The notes below the pieces were generated by a model. It was not told where the DNA came from. It did not search any database and was given only the letters and a program-made list of their open reading frames with translations. 28,473 bases of DNA from a virus: IMG/VR virus record IMGVR_UViG_3300029309_000261, positions 1 through 28,473 of that record, one strand, 5' to 3'. A program made the translations under genes and the position numbers. Below, in pieces: positions 1 through 28,473 of this stretch. How positions within the stretch are numbered: the stretch's first letter is position 1; each line of letters opens with the position of its first letter.

Positions 1-2356
1 TTGTGCCATTTGACATCAAAAACGCCCAGCTGTTTTTATTTCTAAACGTCTGATTTGATGCGGCACCGTCTAGTGTGTCTGATCCGTTTGGCGATACAGT
101 TAAAAGCTTATCTGTTCCTGATGTTTTCACAAGCCCAAAAACTTGACCCGCTGGCACTGTTGACGCCGCCGGAAGGTTTAGAAGTCTCGCTCCTTGAAAG
201 TCTAGGTTTATGCCTGATTGGATTTGGCCGAGGCTAATTCCATATGCCCCACCATTGCCAACCGTTGCTAGAGTTTTAAACTTAAAATCTGTTAGATCCG
301 ATGCTGTATCGGTAACGTCTACGCCGTTTATTTGTAGCATTCCATTGATGTTTATTTTGCGCTCTCCCGCGCCTGACGTGCCGGTACCTAACAACTGCAG
401 CGCATCATTTAAACCGTTGCCATCATGGACTGAAAACAATGTTTTAGCTCTTGCGTTTGTCACGTCCCAAAAAGATCTTTGTTGAGCGATAATGTCAGTG
501 TTTCCAGTCCCTTTTCTAGTGCGTAGTTGACCACATACAATATTTCCAGATGTGACTCCAGAATTATGCAAATCAATAGATGGCCCCGTTTGGTTTGTCC
601 CTTGAGCTAAAACCTCTACGATTGGCTCATTGTTCGACTCAGCCGCACCCATTTTTACTGTTAATCCGGCATTATCTTTGTGAAGTATCTCAACCTCTCC
701 GCTCTGAAACTTCAGGCTTTCTCCTGCATTGCTTAGATCAATGCTACCGCTAAATGTGGCATCTCCTCCGGCGCTTGAATCTAATGACAGCATTGTTAAG
801 CTTTGATTCTTAAACAGTATGTCACTGTTTGTAGAGGCTGCATTGATTGTGATATTTCCAACCGTTGTCTTTAGCTCACTAGCCGCGTCACCTGTTGCAA
901 TATCATTAAGCTTCGGTGTGCCTCCTCCACTTTGATCAACCCAGTCTAAATTACCACTGCCGTCAGTTTTTAAAACCTGATCAGGATCGCCATCGTCATT
1001 GGGTAGTGTGAGTGTGTAAGTTGCATTCGCACTATGTGGCGGCCCTTTAATAGTGATACCGTGTGAGTTTTGTTCACAGTTCAATACAAGCTGGCCGCTT
1101 CCTCCTCCGTCTGTATTTCCCTTGATTGTGACTTTTCCTGTCCCATTTGGAGCTAAGTTAATTGCTCCATTTGAGACGCTTATGATGTCATTTGAATTAA
1201 CGTCTAGATCTCCTCCAAGCTGCGGAGATGTATCAAAAACAAGGTCAGCTACTACATTAGTGATCTGAGACCCGTCAATCGCTGGAATCTTACCGGCACC
1301 ATCGATCAGAAGCACTTCATTTGCAGATGATCCGGCGGCTTTGGCTGCTGCAGTTCCAAGCGTTGGTTTATTGCTTAGGTCTGAGTAATCTCCTGATGTC
1401 GCCACTGTTGCAAGCGTTGGAGTTCCTGAGATGTCTGCATAAGCTCCAGTTGTCGCCACTGTTGCGAGTCCTGTAATGTCAGACGCCGCGGCTGTAACAT
1501 TGGTCAGCTGTGATCCATCAATTGCTGGAATCTTACCTGCGCCATCAATTAGAAGCACTTCATTTGCAGATGATCCAGCGGCCTTGGCTGCTGCAGTCCC
1601 AAGCGTTGGTTTATTGCTTAGGTCTGAGTAATCTCCTGATGTCGCTACTGTTGCGAGCGTTGGTGTTCCTGAGATGTCTGCATAAGCTCCAGTTGTCGCT
1701 ACTGTTGCGAGTCCTGTAATGTCAGACGCCGCGGCTGTAACATTGGTCAGCTGTGATCCATCAATTGTTGGGATCTTACCGGCACCATCGATCAGAAGCA
1801 CTTCATTTGCAGATGATCCGGCGGCCTTGGCTGCTGCAGTTCCAAGCGTTGGTTTATTGCTTAAGTCTGAGTAATCTCCTGATGTCGCTACTGTTGCGAG
1901 ACCTAGATTTGTTTGAGCTTGGCCAAGGTTGTCAAGGTCGCCTAGATTTTGAGACTTCTGTAATGACGTATCGCTTGTGTTGTCAATCACATCAAACATT
2001 GAAGAGGTCACAGGATCAGCCGCGTTTTGATTAAACACGATATGATCATTCACATTAAGCGCAATGCCTGCAAATGTGCCAGCGTGACTGACTAAATACA
2101 GGTCGCCTTTTAACGCTGTAACTAAGCTTGGAGTTGCTGTTGCTGCATTAAAAGACCCCTTATACTCAACGCCGCCCGATACTGCTGCATTGATCTTTGC
2201 TTGCACTAGGGCAGGAGTCATTGCCGTCACTGTGTTGGTTCCGGCTGTAGACTCGCCTGATGTAGCGATTCGGATTTTGCCTGCTGTTGTATCTGTTGCG
2301 TCTGCTATTGAAGCAGAACCGCCGCCGCTCTGTGGTGGAAATACTACGATACTCAT
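1..2356 (-). CDS. Repeat-rich tail fibre protein, 3' end beyond the window
   Basis: An open frame begins at ATG 2356-2354, directly after the TAA of the preceding gene (2357-2359), and stays free of stops for 785 codons to the left edge, so the C-terminus is missing. The N-terminus is MSIVVFPPQSGGG. Residues about 153-365 consist of an 81-residue repeat in two full copies and one partial copy, with motifs YSDLSNKPTLGTAAA and NEVLLIDGAGKIP. Near residue 445 is TLTLPNDDGDPDQVL followed by KTDGSGNLDWV, a motif I know from structural proteins of marine phages. The later part is Gly-, Asn- and Thr-rich and looks beta-structured. Repeats of this kind are typical of trimeric tail fibres, so host recognition at the tail tip is the likely role. 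The fibre call is confident; the receptor and any C-terminal chaperone domain cannot be seen. Confidence 0.82.
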   Translation of the reverse strand, partial: MSIVVFPPQSGGGSASIADATDTTAGKIRIATSGESTAGTNTVTAMTPALVQAKINAAVSGGVEYKGSFNAATATPSLVTALKGDLYLVSHAGTFAGIALNVNDHIVFNQNAADPVTSSMFDVIDNTSDTSLQKSQNLGDLDNLGQAQTNLGLATVATSGDYSDLSNKPTLGTAAAKAAGSSANEVLLIDGAGKIPTIDGSQLTNVTAAASDITGLATVATTGAYADISGTPTLATVATSGDYSDLSNKPTLGTAAAKAAGSSANEVLLIDGAGKIPAIDGSQLTNVTAAASDITGLATVATTGAYADISGTPTLATVATSGDYSDLSNKPTLGTAAAKAAGSSANEVLLIDGAGKIPAIDGSQITNVVADLVFDTSPQLGGDLDVNSNDIISVSNGAINLAPNGTGKVTIKGNTDGGGSGQLVLNCEQNSHGITIKGPPHSANATYTLTLPNDDGDPDQVLKTDGSGNLDWVDQSGGGTPKLNDIATGDAASELKTTVGNITINAASTNSDILFKNQSLTMLSLDSSAGGDATFSGSIDLSNAGESLKFQSGEVEILHKDNAGLTVKMGAAESNNEPIVEVLAQGTNQTGPSIDLHNSGVTSGNIVCGQLRTRKGTGNTDIIAQQRSFWDVTNARAKTLFSVHDGNGLNDALQLLGTGTSGAGERKININGMLQINGVDVTDTASDLTDFKFKTLATVGNGGAYGISLGQIQSGINLDFQGARLLNLPAASTVPAGQVFGLVKTSGTDKLLTVSPNGSDTLDGAASNQTFRNKNSWAFLMSNGT
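1262..1900. repeat. 243-bp tandem repeat, about 2.6 copies, inside the tail fibre gene
   Basis: Copies lie at 1262-1504, 1505-1747 and 1748-1900 (partial). The period is exactly 243 bp (81 codons), so the reading frame is kept. Copies differ at only scattered bases, many of them third codon positions. Within each unit a shorter theme recurs, encoding LATVATSGDYSDLS and LATVATTGAYADIS. Confidence 0.9.
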
Positions 2357-25200: not shown

Positions 25201-25362
25201 TTATTGATCTTTCTTTGTTTGTTGCTTGAGTTGCTCAATGCCTAGACTCAACGCTCGTCTATAGACTTGTGATTTTGTTTGCTCTTTAATGCTAGCTAGT
25301 GACTCAATAAAGCGCACTTGCTCAGCTTCGAGCCTGATTTGTTTAGTAACAAGATTACTCAT
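25201..25362 (-). CDS. Ribbon-helix-helix transcriptional regulator (53 aa)
   Basis: ATG 25362 to TAA 25203-25201 encodes 53 residues. Residues 4-11 form a strand (LVTKQIRL), then helix A (EAEQVRFIESLASIKEQT), a turn, and helix B beginning SQVYRRALSLGIEQL. This is the Arc/CopG/MetJ pattern, whose dimer inserts the strand into the major groove. AAAGGAGA lies four bases before the start, a strong site. It begins the leftward operon with SSB, terminases and nuclease, abuts the SSB start, and faces thyX across 48 bases that hold two 10-bp direct repeats. It is likely autoregulatory; the target is inferred. Confidence 0.72.
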   Translation of the reverse strand: MSNLVTKQIRLEAEQVRFIESLASIKEQTKSQVYRRALSLGIEQLKQQTKKDQ

Positions 25363-25373
25363 ACATCTCCTTT

Positions 25374-25393
25374 ACAATACATTGCAATACATT
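25374..25393. promoter_or_regulatory. Two tandem 10-bp direct repeats (A/G)CAATACATT, operator candidate
   Basis: ACAATACATT at 25374-25383 is followed by GCAATACATT at 25384-25393, and then ACATTA. Ten-base spacing is one helical turn, the arrangement that tandem ribbon-helix-helix dimers use. It sits in the 48-base gap between the regulator gene and thyX, 11 bases from the regulator start, so it could control both directions. Confidence 0.5.
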
Positions 25394-25410
25394 ACATTAG
25401 GGTACAATTA

Positions 25411-26055
25411 ATGCAGACACAAGATTTAATTCAACTCATCTCTAAAAGTGGAGACTTAACCCAAGTAGTCAACGCGGCCCGTGTAAGCTTTGGCAGACAC
25501 GTCAACGAACTAGATGACAATGATAAAAAACTTATAAAGTATTTATGGAGCCATAAACACACGTCACCATTCAGACATGTCTATTTCACTTTTAGAATCA
25601 AAGCGCCGATCTTTGTATTGCGCCAATGGATGAAGCACCAAGTAGGTTGTTCATGGAATGAAATCAGCGCAAGGTATGTGCAGCTTAACAATGAGTTTTA
25701 CTTGCCAGCTTTATGGCGTGCTAAGAGTAAGCAAATTAAACAAGGTTCAAAAGGTCAAATTAAAGATCAGTCAGAAGCGAGTGATTTATATAAAAAGGCT
25801 GTTGATCATGCATACAATACATATCTTGATCTTTTAAATGCTGGAGTAGCTCGAGAACAAGCTCGAATGATTCTGCCTGTATCGATCTATAGTGAATGCT
25901 ACTGGACGGCCTCACTGCATGCCGTTATGCACTTTTTATCATTGCGTCTTGACTCTCATGCTCAGCAGGAAATTAGATCTTATGCTGAAGAGATTAAGCA
26001 GATTCTGACTAATGAAGGCTTTGGTTTAGTTATGGAGCTGATCGATGCAGACTAG
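25411..26055 (+). CDS. thyX: Flavin-dependent thymidylate synthase
   Basis: A 214-residue protein. I chose ATG 25411 (TAGGG about eight bases upstream) over an in-frame TTG at 25318 that would overlap the regulator gene. ThyX forms dTMP from dUMP with FAD, NADPH and methylene-tetrahydrofolate. The signature region is at about 69-90: VLRQWMKHQVGCSWNEISAR. The family motif RHR-x7-S is altered: KHQ replaces RHR and eight residues precede the serine. SPFRHVYFTFRIKAP upstream and QARMILPVSIYSECYWT downstream (flavin/substrate strands and helices) are typical. It runs opposite to its neighbours and overlaps the dCMP deaminase by 11 bases. The two enzymes give dCMP to dUMP to dTMP. Confidence 0.88.
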   Translation: MQTQDLIQLISKSGDLTQVVNAARVSFGRHVNELDDNDKKLIKYLWSHKHTSPFRHVYFTFRIKAPIFVLRQWMKHQVGCSWNEISARYVQLNNEFYLPALWRAKSKQIKQGSKGQIKDQSEASDLYKKAVDHAYNTYLDLLNAGVAREQARMILPVSIYSECYWTASLHAVMHFLSLRLDSHAQQEIRSYAEEIKQILTNEGFGLVMELIDAD

Positions 26056-26485
26056 CTGGGCTCAACACTGGATGCAACACGCCGAGCTACTAGCAAAGCA
26101 AAGCCCTTGTTCACGCGGTAAAGTTGGCGCGTTAATTATTGACACTCGAAATAATATTATCAGCACTGGATTCAATGGGCCTCCACGTAAAGCACCGGGT
26201 ATTTATTGCGCTGGGTCTGTCTGTGTACGCAATGAGCAAAATATAAAATCAGGTACTCATACTGAGCTTGGATGTCATCACGCAGAGCAAAACGCGATAT
26301 GTAACGCAGCTTATAAAGGGATAGCATTATATAAATCTTGGCTGATTGTCTCAGTTGCGCCGTGTCTGGGCTGTGCTCGAGTTGTGCATCACGCTGGGAT
26401 CTCTGGCGTGGTGTGCAAAATTAATTATGACAGACGTGGAATACAGTATTTAAGAAAACATGGCGTCGAGGTCATCACGCTCTAG
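26045..26485 (+). CDS. dCMP deaminase
   Basis: A 146-residue zinc-dependent deoxycytidylate deaminase. The zinc site is His79-Ala-Glu81 (HAE, Glu the proton shuttle) with Cys107 and Cys110 in APCLGCAR. Cys55 and Cys60 in the insertion CAGSVCVRN may bind a structural zinc, as in some phage enzymes. FNGPPR at 43-48 and SPCSRGKVGA at 20-29 are typical of the family. It makes dUMP, the ThyX substrate. GGAG lies seven bases before ATG 26045, inside thyX. The stop TAG overlaps the stop of the convergent methyltransferase in the sequence CTAG (26482-26485). Confidence 0.92.
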   Translation: MQTSWAQHWMQHAELLAKQSPCSRGKVGALIIDTRNNIISTGFNGPPRKAPGIYCAGSVCVRNEQNIKSGTHTELGCHHAEQNAICNAAYKGIALYKSWLIVSVAPCLGCARVVHHAGISGVVCKINYDRRGIQYLRKHGVEVITL

Positions 26486-27249
26486 AAAAGAGACCCTTGT
26501 ATACCTGTCTCCTCTAGTTGTCTCACTCTTTGACAAGCGAGATCAAAATATCTTTGATCTCTTTCTATTCCGACAAACTTCAATTCTTTTTGCATAGCGA
26601 CAAGCGCAACAGTTCCAGACCCTAGAAAAGGATCAATAATAGTATCGCCTTTTGTTGTCGTTGGGTCTAGGCAATTGTATACAAGCTGATCCGGAAATGA
26701 GCAGACGTGACCATTGTTTCTTGATGGTGGTATTCTCCATATGTTAGTTAAGCCATATTTATTATCCCATTTTCTAGGCTTTTTAATTTGATAAATCATT
26801 TCGCTTTGAATGTGATATCTGTTGTGGGGATGCCCGATGCCGCAACGATCCCAAATAATATGACACCATATAGGGAAATCTTGTAGCCATTGATAAGGGT
26901 CAAGCGTCCTACACAATGTCTTATGTTTGTTTCTTGAATGCCAAGCATATCTAATTTTGTGATTATAAAAGACGCTACTTTTGCAGACTCTTATTAATTC
27001 ATGCATAACGGCTTTTTGGTAGCCTTGATACATGTACTCATCCATTCTGTCATCATACCACTCCTTGTATTTTTCAGAAAAGGCAAATGCAGTTTTACTT
27101 GTCGGCTCTGAAGAGTCTTGATCTATGTTGAGATTATATGGAGGAGATGTGACACAAACTTCTATTACATTAGAGTCTAGCTGCTTCAGTACTTCGTATG
27201 CGTCACCCTTATAGATTATTCCATTTTTAAAGCTCTGGCTGTCTAGCAT
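26482..27249 (-). CDS. Site-specific DNA methyltransferase (N4-cytosine or N6-adenine, beta class)
   Basis: A 255-residue protein. Motif IV TSPPYN is at 34-39 and motif I (DPFLGSGT) at 206-213, so the catalytic motif precedes the AdoMet motif, the beta class order. SPPY often goes with N4-cytosine methylation, but N6-adenine members also exist, so the base is undecided. The middle (about 45-175) is the target recognition region, with no recognisable specificity. ATG 27249 overlaps the helicase loader stop by one base (TGATG). Role: protection from host restriction, regulation, or one half of a restriction system. No cognate nuclease is adjacent; the nearest candidate is at 23097-24290. Confidence 0.85.
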   Translation of the reverse strand: MLDSQSFKNGIIYKGDAYEVLKQLDSNVIEVCVTSPPYNLNIDQDSSEPTSKTAFAFSEKYKEWYDDRMDEYMYQGYQKAVMHELIRVCKSSVFYNHKIRYAWHSRNKHKTLCRTLDPYQWLQDFPIWCHIIWDRCGIGHPHNRYHIQSEMIYQIKKPRKWDNKYGLTNIWRIPPSRNNGHVCSFPDQLVYNCLDPTTTKGDTIIDPFLGSGTVALVAMQKELKFVGIERDQRYFDLACQRVRQLEETGIQGSLF

Positions 27250-28112
27250 CAGTTTACCCCTTTAAACGGGTTAAATCCGCTACCTCTTCGATCTCTTCCC
27301 ATGCATTGATGTACATTGGGCAAGAGGTCACCGAGTCTACTTATTGCGCGTGAATCCATAGCTTTATTTAAGTTGCTCGGGCTTATGTTAGACGCTGCTA
27401 TAAGTTGAATCTTTTCTCTGTGCAGCTCCATGATCATTTCTGACGTTGTCTCTTTGCTCCATTCAGTCGGTCTTAAATTGCACATCTCATCAATCAAGAT
27501 CACATCTGCTTTATCAATCCATGAATCCAAAGGGTTCTTTATTAGTGGATCATTAAAGCTTAACTTAACACGCTTTATAAAAGCCTCATGTGAATAGTAA
27601 CGGACTCTTTTACCAAGCCAACACAGCCGGCGACCAATAGCACAGAGTAAATGAGTCTTACCATTGCCAGGCTCACCATGCAGATATAAGCCTTGACCCT
27701 TTAAAGCCGCTTGGATTGCTTGTGAAATGTTTGGGTCTTCACTTATGTCATAAGTATGAAGCGAACGATTGAGAACATATTCACCGAGTCCCATTTTTTT
27801 AATGCGATCAAGTGCAAGGTTAATGGGCGTGCATCTTGGACAGTGTGGCTGCTGTTTATGATTCCTGATATCTTCAAGGTCTCGATGCGGTAAAATGTGA
27901 CGACCGTTTGCATTTTGAGTACAGCCATTGATCTGACATGATTCCAGATAGTCTGTAAAAAACTGATGATCTTGAATACCGATCATGTTTAGACTCTCTA
28001 GAATCTCATCAGTGCAATCATGATAATTGATAGCATGAGTGACTGGCTCATAAGTTGGGATCTCTTTTAAGGTCAATGCAATCTCTTCTAAGCCTTCTCC
28101 AATTTTAATCAT
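27249..28112 (-). CDS. DnaC-like AAA+ helicase loader
   Basis: A 287-residue protein. I chose ATG 28112 (MIKIGEG) because AAGGGG lies six bases upstream. GTG 28145 and ATG 28118 are open but lack a spaced site. Walker A is GEPGNGKT (146-153) and Walker B VILIDEM (203-209); TEWSKETTSEMIMELHREK and LIAASNIS fit later AAA+ motifs. Cys59 and Cys64, with Cys91 and Cys94 (HCPRC), suggest a zinc-binding N-terminal domain. It would deliver the replicative helicase to the origin with the upstream initiator. It overlaps that gene's end by eight bases, and the order initiator then loader resembles lambda O-P. Confidence 0.85.
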   Translation of the reverse strand: MIKIGEGLEEIALTLKEIPTYEPVTHAINYHDCTDEILESLNMIGIQDHQFFTDYLESCQINGCTQNANGRHILPHRDLEDIRNHKQQPHCPRCTPINLALDRIKKMGLGEYVLNRSLHTYDISEDPNISQAIQAALKGQGLYLHGEPGNGKTHLLCAIGRRLCWLGKRVRYYSHEAFIKRVKLSFNDPLIKNPLDSWIDKADVILIDEMCNLRPTEWSKETTSEMIMELHREKIQLIAASNISPSNLNKAMDSRAISRLGDLLPNVHQCMGRDRRGSGFNPFKGVN

Positions 28113-28473
28113 TCTCATCCCCTTTTCTTTCTTCGAATAAGTCACCCCACGCTAAAGCGTGTGGTTTCCTTCTTGCGCGCACGTGCGTATTAACAGTATT
28201 TTTAACAGTATTATAGTCAGTATTATTAACAGTATTATAATCAGTATAAGGTATGTCACCATGGGAATGTTCATTCTCACCATGGGAATGTTCATTCTCA
28301 CCATGGGAATGCTTAGTCTCACCATGGGAATACTCAGTCTCACCATGGGAGTGTGTATTCTCACCATGGGAATGTGTATTCTCACTATGGGAATGTTCAA
28401 TGTACTTAATAAGGGCCTCTATATTGATTTTAATATAGGGCTCAATCTCTCTTCTCTCATCCCCTTGTGCCGT
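28105..28473 (-). CDS. Replication initiator C-terminal part, 5' end outside the window (putative)
   Basis: The minus frame is open from the right edge to TAA 28107-28105 (122 codons). It reads TAQGDERREIEPYIKINIE, then seven heptads of the type HSHGENE, then DIPYTDYNTVNNTDYNTVKN, then a basic stretch VRARRKPHALAWGD and LFEERKGDEND. The seven heptads are encoded by the 21-bp repeat array, and the DYNTV stretch by the 12-bp AT-rich repeats. Stop overlaps the DnaC-like gene by eight bases. Initiator identity is from position and the embedded origin-like DNA. The functional N-terminus is not in the window, so confidence is moderate; the reading frame itself is clear. Confidence 0.6.
   Translation of the reverse strand, partial: TAQGDERREIEPYIKINIEALIKYIEHSHSENTHSHGENTHSHGETEYSHGETKHSHGENEHSHGENEHSHGDIPYTDYNTVNNTDYNTVKNTVNTHVRARRKPHALAWGDLFEERKGDEND
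28148..28187. other. Two perfect palindromes beside the AT-rich tract
   Basis: CACGCT-AA-AGCGTG at 28148-28161 can form a short hairpin, and CGCACGTGCG at 28178-28187 is a perfect 10-bp palindrome. They are GC-rich, unlike the adjacent AT-rich tract, and lie inside the initiator-gene coding sequence. They may be part of the origin or protein-binding sites. Coding constraint alone could also explain them. Confidence 0.4.
28194..28253. repeat. Five 12-bp AT-rich tandem repeats, unwinding-element candidate
   Basis: CAGTAT recurs at 28194, 28206, 28218, 28230 and 28242, every 12 bases. The other bases are nearly all A or T, for example CAGTATTTTTAA and CAGTATTATAAT. The tract lies next to the 21-bp repeats, as an AT-rich unwinding element lies next to initiator-binding iterons in lambda and many plasmids. 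Confidence 0.85.
28257..28403. repeat. Seven 21-bp tandem repeats, iteron-like
   Basis: Units start at 28257, 28278, 28299, 28320, 28341, 28362 and 28383. The shared core CACCATGGGAATG is followed by a more variable eight bases. The period of 21 bp is exactly two helical turns and seven codons. The core is almost fully conserved even at synonymous positions (Ser TCC, Gly GGT), whereas the tail varies. There are no spacers, so it is not a CRISPR array. Confidence 0.92.

What the first reader, a model, noticed from the sequence alone, without database searches (positions are those of the whole stretch)
28194..28403. Predicted phage replication origin inside the initiator gene: seven 21-bp iterons plus five 12-bp AT-rich repeats
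Seen directly: seven 21-bp tandem repeats (28257-28403), then five 12-bp AT-rich repeats (28194-28253), inside one leftward reading frame that is followed by a DnaC-like loader gene. Known: lambda ori has four iterons and an AT-rich tract within gene O, followed by P. Inference: this is an O-ori-P analogue with an unusually regular iteron array. The 21-bp core is conserved at synonymous positions, which suggests DNA-level selection, or recent duplication.
Basis: partly seen in the sequence, partly recalled or inferred. Interest (0 to 1): 0.8.

Follow-up and report, generated by a model that had tools for sequence, protein, structure and literature searches.

The report
Lambda-type phage origin inside initiator gene
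The repeats are very probably the replication origin of an uncultured phage, built inside the gene for the protein that recognises it, as in phage lambda; relatives with many different repeat sequences show that the repeats and the protein's DNA-binding domain change together.

Summary
In detail: seven 21-bp repeats and five 12-bp AT-rich repeats lie in one leftward reading frame that overlaps a DnaC/DnaI-like helicase-loader gene. The initiator gene is cut off by the contig end. A near relative (L002; loader 93% identical) has the whole gene: a winged-helix N-terminus (pLDDT >90), a disordered linker encoded by the repeats, and a C-terminal helix. Its layout is the same, but its 21-bp unit has a different sequence. 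I collected 34 more distinct relatives from uncultured phages. Nearly all have an array inside the gene just upstream of a DnaC-like loader, usually followed by an AT-rich tract. Many units are imperfect inverted repeats (window: ATTCCCA-TGG-TGAGAAT). In 26 of 36 genes the same core is read in two or three reading frames, so selection acts on the DNA, not on a repeated peptide. Across recombinant genes the repeats follow the N-terminal domain: 22 pairs share the C-terminus but differ in both, and 5 pairs share both but differ in the C-terminus. It works like lambda O-ori-P. Origin activity, binding and the window's own N-terminus are untested. Ordinary in kind, but a useful set for initiator-iteron specificity.

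The parts
28105..28473 (-). O-like initiator gene, 3' part only (5' end missing at the contig end)
   Evidence: Open frame; aligns with the complete 199-aa gene L002:3405-4004
28252..28394 (-).
28194..28253 (-). AT-rich tract of five 12-bp units ending in ATACTG; predicted unwinding element
   Evidence: same five boxes at 12-bp spacing in L002
27249..28112 (-). DnaC/DnaI-like AAA+ helicase loader, overlapping the initiator gene (ATG at 28118 also possible)

Best explanation
The region is the replication origin of a tailed phage, placed inside the gene of its own initiator, with the layout of lambda O-ori-P. Shown: the repeats, the AT tract, the gene order, the winged-helix N-terminus in the relative, DNA-level maintenance of the repeats in the family, and co-segregation of repeats with the N-terminal domain. 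Inferred: the initiator binds the dyads with its N-terminal domain, probably as dimers as in lambda; several bound copies on the regularly spaced array strain the DNA and open the adjacent AT-rich 12-mers; the C-terminal part then recruits the DnaC-like loader, which brings host DnaB. The peptide encoded by the repeats is probably only a flexible linker.
For: Array and AT tract at the stated place. Loader gene next door. Complete relative with winged helix, disordered repeat-encoded linker (residues 115-160) and C-terminal helix. Family profile scores L002 at 25.8 bits, best of 2000 decoys 7.2. Nine relatives match PHROG replication-initiation or O-like families. 26 of 36 genes read the same core in two or three frames. 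Iterons follow the N-terminal domain in 27 discordant pairs. The AT-rich tract follows the array in most genes. Lambda and phi80 records show the same layout.
Against: No binding, melting or replication test exists. The window's own N-terminal domain is missing. Curated O-protein profiles are not reached. Dyad symmetry is weak or absent in some relatives. GC skew gives no support.
Confidence: 0.9

Rival explanations
1. The repeats are kept for the protein: a heptapeptide repeat (HSHGENE) with a structural or metal-binding role, and the DNA repeat is a by-product.
For: In the window all copies lie in one frame and the peptide is rich in His.
Against: The peptide is not conserved in L002 (NDQSEHS). 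In 26 of 36 genes the same DNA core is read in two or three frames and so encodes different peptides. The segment is predicted disordered.
Confidence: 0.03
2. The array is a binding site used mainly for regulation, such as autorepression of the initiator operon or control of copy number, and replication starts elsewhere.
For: Iterons also act in control in iteron plasmids (established knowledge). Origin activity is not shown here.
Against: The array lies deep in the coding sequence, next to an AT-rich tract in most relatives, which fits unwinding better than promoter control. The core is found nowhere else in the window.
Confidence: 0.05
3. The array is a recent, functionless tandem duplication.
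For: Copies within the window are nearly identical, although the loader genes of window and L002 differ at dS 0.90, so the array is young or homogenised.
Against: Arrays occur at the same place in 36 distinct genes, change together with the DNA-binding domain, and in the window differences avoid the dyad (4 of 102 against 8 of 24 positions).
Confidence: 0.02

Closest known systems
Phage lambda O gene with ori-lambda and P (NC_001416 38686-40283)
   Same: Iterons that are inverted repeats inside the initiator gene, AT-rich tract beside them, helicase-loading gene directly downstream and overlapping; iterons lie in more than one reading frame (PMC5043065, PMC7466680).
   Different: Lambda has four iterons at 20-24 bp spacing; here seven at constant 21 bp. 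The loader here is DnaC/DnaI-like. Sequence similarity to lambda O is at decoy level.
Phage phi80 gene 15 with its origin (NC_021190)
   Same: Four gp15 sites inside the initiator gene at 20-21 bp spacing; weak profile match to the family's winged helix (13.6 bits).
   Different: Different iteron sequence, four sites instead of seven, gene 14 annotated as P-like.
RepA_N plasmid and satellite initiators (pSK41, pTZ2162, PLE RepA)
   Same: [quoted passage not shown] DnaD N-terminus (2v79) at Z 8.2.
   Different: No sequence match found; unrelated winged helices score the same or higher. Not a phage O-loader module.

Membership tests
Lambda-type O-ori-loader module (functional class) | Initiator-binding repeats inside the initiator gene | tested here: met
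   binding itself not tested
Lambda-type O-ori-loader module (functional class) | Repeats are inverted repeats able to take a dimer | tested here: met
   Window 6 of 7 arm positions, p 0.041; L002 6 of 7, p 0.020; weaker in some relatives
Lambda-type O-ori-loader module (functional class) | AT-rich tract next to the repeats | tested here: met
   Window 82% AT in 50 bp against 60% for the gene; similar in most relatives
Lambda-type O-ori-loader module (functional class) | Helicase-loader gene directly downstream | tested here: met
   DnaC/DnaI-like gene overlaps the initiator gene
Lambda-type O-ori-loader module (functional class) | DNA-binding N-terminal domain in the initiator | tested here: inconclusive
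   Met in L002 and relatives; in the window itself the domain lies beyond the contig end
Lambda-type O-ori-loader module (functional class) | Initiator binding and origin activity | not testable with these tools
   Needs experiment
Pfam Phage_rep_O / NCBIfam phage_O_Nterm (sequence family) | Profile score above the curated cut-off | tested here: not met
   L002 no hit; best relative L069 24.7 of 28.7 bits and 22.4 of 45.5 bits
RepA_N / DnaD-like initiators | DnaD-like winged-helix N-terminus related beyond the common fold | tested here: inconclusive
   DnaD 2v79 Z 8.2, 4pql Z 7.3, not above unrelated winged helices

The most novel reading that the evidence does not exclude
In this uncultured phage group the initiator's DNA-binding domain and its iterons form a cassette that is exchanged between phages and evolves new specificities in step, and the need to keep the gene open limits how the iterons may be spaced. 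Many half-sites contain TGA, so one frame is closed; 51 of 53 consecutive 22/23-bp spacings alternate, which keeps the cores out of that frame, while the two genes with stop-free cores use all three frames. The window meets the same constraint with a frame-preserving 21-bp unit.
Probability: 0.5. Interest if true: 0.6.

Novelty: new member of a known kind. Interest (0 to 1): 0.5.

Why it matters
Lambda-type origins are textbook, but the rule by which an O-type winged helix chooses its iteron is, as far as I know, not worked out. This group offers 36 distinct initiator genes, each carrying its own putative sites, with natural recombinants and near-isogenic pairs. L036 and L039 have identical C-termini and differ in a few helix and wing residues, while their iterons differ (AGTGTCAAAATGACA and ATGGACAAAATGACC). 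That makes initiator-origin specificity, and how it evolves while the site must also stay an open reading frame, directly testable.

Tried and rejected
DNA similarity and tblastn searches with the window's and L002's initiator in 50,697 phage records gave nothing; initiators of L041, L012, L069 and L057 likewise. The one genome-contig scan with the loader found no host genome or prophage. An exact search for the window's iteron pair in viral contigs found no other carrier. phmmer against the PDB with the L002 initiator gave only chance matches. GC skew in four related contigs was mostly monotonic, with no extreme at the initiator gene. The single-strand fold of the stretch after the array was only weakly better than shuffled (z -1.6). 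A first dyad script used too short a flank and missed the L002 and L077 dyads; it was redone. Protein-repeat and mere-duplication readings were rejected on frame use and family evidence. The second structure job was not used. Lambda P was not compared with the loader.

Full report
Observation. The window is a 28,473-base virus record. At its right end an open frame on the minus strand (28105-28473) runs off the contig. It contains seven 21-bp repeats and, next to them, five 12-bp AT-rich repeats. The 17-bp core ATTCCCATGGTGAGAAT is found seven times with up to three mismatches, all in the array, against 0.09 expected. In 100 shuffled windows the best tandem array scored 74, against 204 here. 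The finding is real and at the stated place.

Neighbour. The gene overlapping the end of this frame, 27249-28112(-), is a DnaC/DnaI-like AAA+ helicase loader: PHROG_50 at 2.9e-22, Bac_DnaA and IstB in Pfam, DnaI in the PDB at 8e-7. It is not above the NCBIfam cut-off of any one named loader.

The complete gene in a relative. One viral contig, L002, encodes a loader 93% identical to the window's and holds the whole upstream gene, 199 codons. It has the same layout, with five 21-bp units (the last one degraded) and five ATACTG boxes at 12-bp spacing, but its unit is ATGATCAGAGTGAGCAT instead of ATTCCCATGGTGAGAAT (11 of 17 positions shared). The loader genes differ at dS 0.90. Within the window's first six copies only 4 of 102 dyad positions depart from consensus, against 8 of 24 in the 4-bp joints (p 0.0002). 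So the units changed together within each phage.

Fold. A model of the L002 protein from a 36-sequence alignment has pLDDT above 90 over about residues 1-100, a winged helix. Residues 115-160, which the repeats and AT boxes encode, are disordered, and a C-terminal helix follows. In the PDB many winged helices match about equally well, DnaD among them. In the viral library a 'putative replication protein O' is the fourth match (E 1.9e-6), a 'lambda GpO, N-terminal' protein is at 6e-5, and most named matches are helix-turn-helix proteins.

Family. Scans with the RecT-like protein of L002 and the dCMP deaminase of the window returned 78 loci. In nearly all that hold a DnaC-like gene and its upstream gene, the upstream gene carries a repeat array. 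Collapsing near-identical copies leaves 36 distinct genes, window and L002 included. Nine tested relatives match PHROG replication-initiation or O-like families, with best E-values from about 5e-4 to 3e-11. A profile of the relatives' N-termini, built without L002, scores L002 at 25.8 bits; the best of 2000 shuffled decoys reaches 7.2.

Dyads. In the window and L002 the unit is an imperfect inverted repeat with 6 of 7 complementary arm positions around a 3-bp centre (p 0.041 and 0.020). Over the 36 genes the mean is 5.4 against 4.0 expected, but genes vary and some show no clear symmetry. Lambda iterons are described as nearly perfect inverted repeats that bind O dimers beside a 40-bp AT-rich region (PMC5043065); the lambda and phi80 records show their iterons inside the initiator gene.

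DNA or protein level. In the window alone this stays open, because all copies lie in one frame. In the family it is settled: counting only sites with at most one mismatch, 26 of 36 genes read the same core in two or three frames, so the same DNA encodes different peptides. Spacings of 22 and 23 bp alternate in 51 of 53 consecutive cases. In 21 of 24 two-frame genes the unused frame is the one in which the core would give a stop codon, and the two genes that use all three frames have stop-free cores. That a used frame has no stop is trivial; that the unused one is usually blocked is not. Duplication in 45-bp steps could also produce alternation. One gene (L060) conflicts at the edge of its consensus.

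Initiator and iterons travel together. Twenty-two pairs of genes (not independent of each other) have C-termini at least 85% identical but different helices; their iterons differ in every case. Five pairs have nearly identical helices but different C-termini; their iterons are the same or nearly so. Physical linkage could contribute, because the array lies between the two domains. The correlation of iteron distance with helix distance survives correction for the C-terminus (r 0.44, p 0.0005) but is not significant after correction for the rest of the N-terminal domain (r 0.11, p 0.07), so the evidence points to the N-terminal domain as a whole. The sharpest pair is L036 and L039: C-termini identical, rest of the winged helix 96% identical, helix 72% identical, iterons different.

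AT tract. In 23 of 36 genes the most AT-rich 50 bp starts within -10 to +40 of the measured end of the array, and in most others it starts slightly earlier or later. In L008 the measured array end is too early. In L041 and L069 a stretch near the start of the frame is richer.

Mechanism. By analogy with lambda (PMC5043065, PMC7466680), the initiator binds the dyads, the nucleoprotein array opens the AT-rich boxes, and the loader delivers DnaB. Binding, opening and delivery are inferred. The ATACTG boxes stay the same in window and L002 while the iterons differ, which suggests that something other than the iteron-reading surface uses them; this too is inference.

Membership. It works like lambda O-ori-P. 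By sequence it is not shown to belong to Phage_rep_O: cut-offs were not reached. Verdict: a new member of a known kind, with high confidence in the function class, and a data set of some value for specificity studies.

Noticed in passing
window 1254-1900: Tandem repeat of 243 bp, 2.7 copies, 93% alike, inside the 785-codon minus-strand frame 2-2356.
   Followed up: no
window 28148-28161: Small hairpin CACGCTTTAGCGTG just after the AT tract; L002 has CACGCTTCAGCGTG at the same place. It may follow from the conserved protein motif HA-AW.
   Followed up: partly
L002:3332-3381: Two copies of TGTATAAAAAGTATAC between a divergent HTH regulator gene and the initiator gene, probably operator sites.
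   Followed up: no
window 28252-28268 and L002:3811-3827: In both phages the iteron nearest the AT tract has a degraded half-site on the AT side.
   Followed up: no
window 25318-26485: ThyX-type thymidylate synthase and dCMP deaminase genes on the plus strand, against the direction of most neighbours; both are also together in L002.
   Followed up: no
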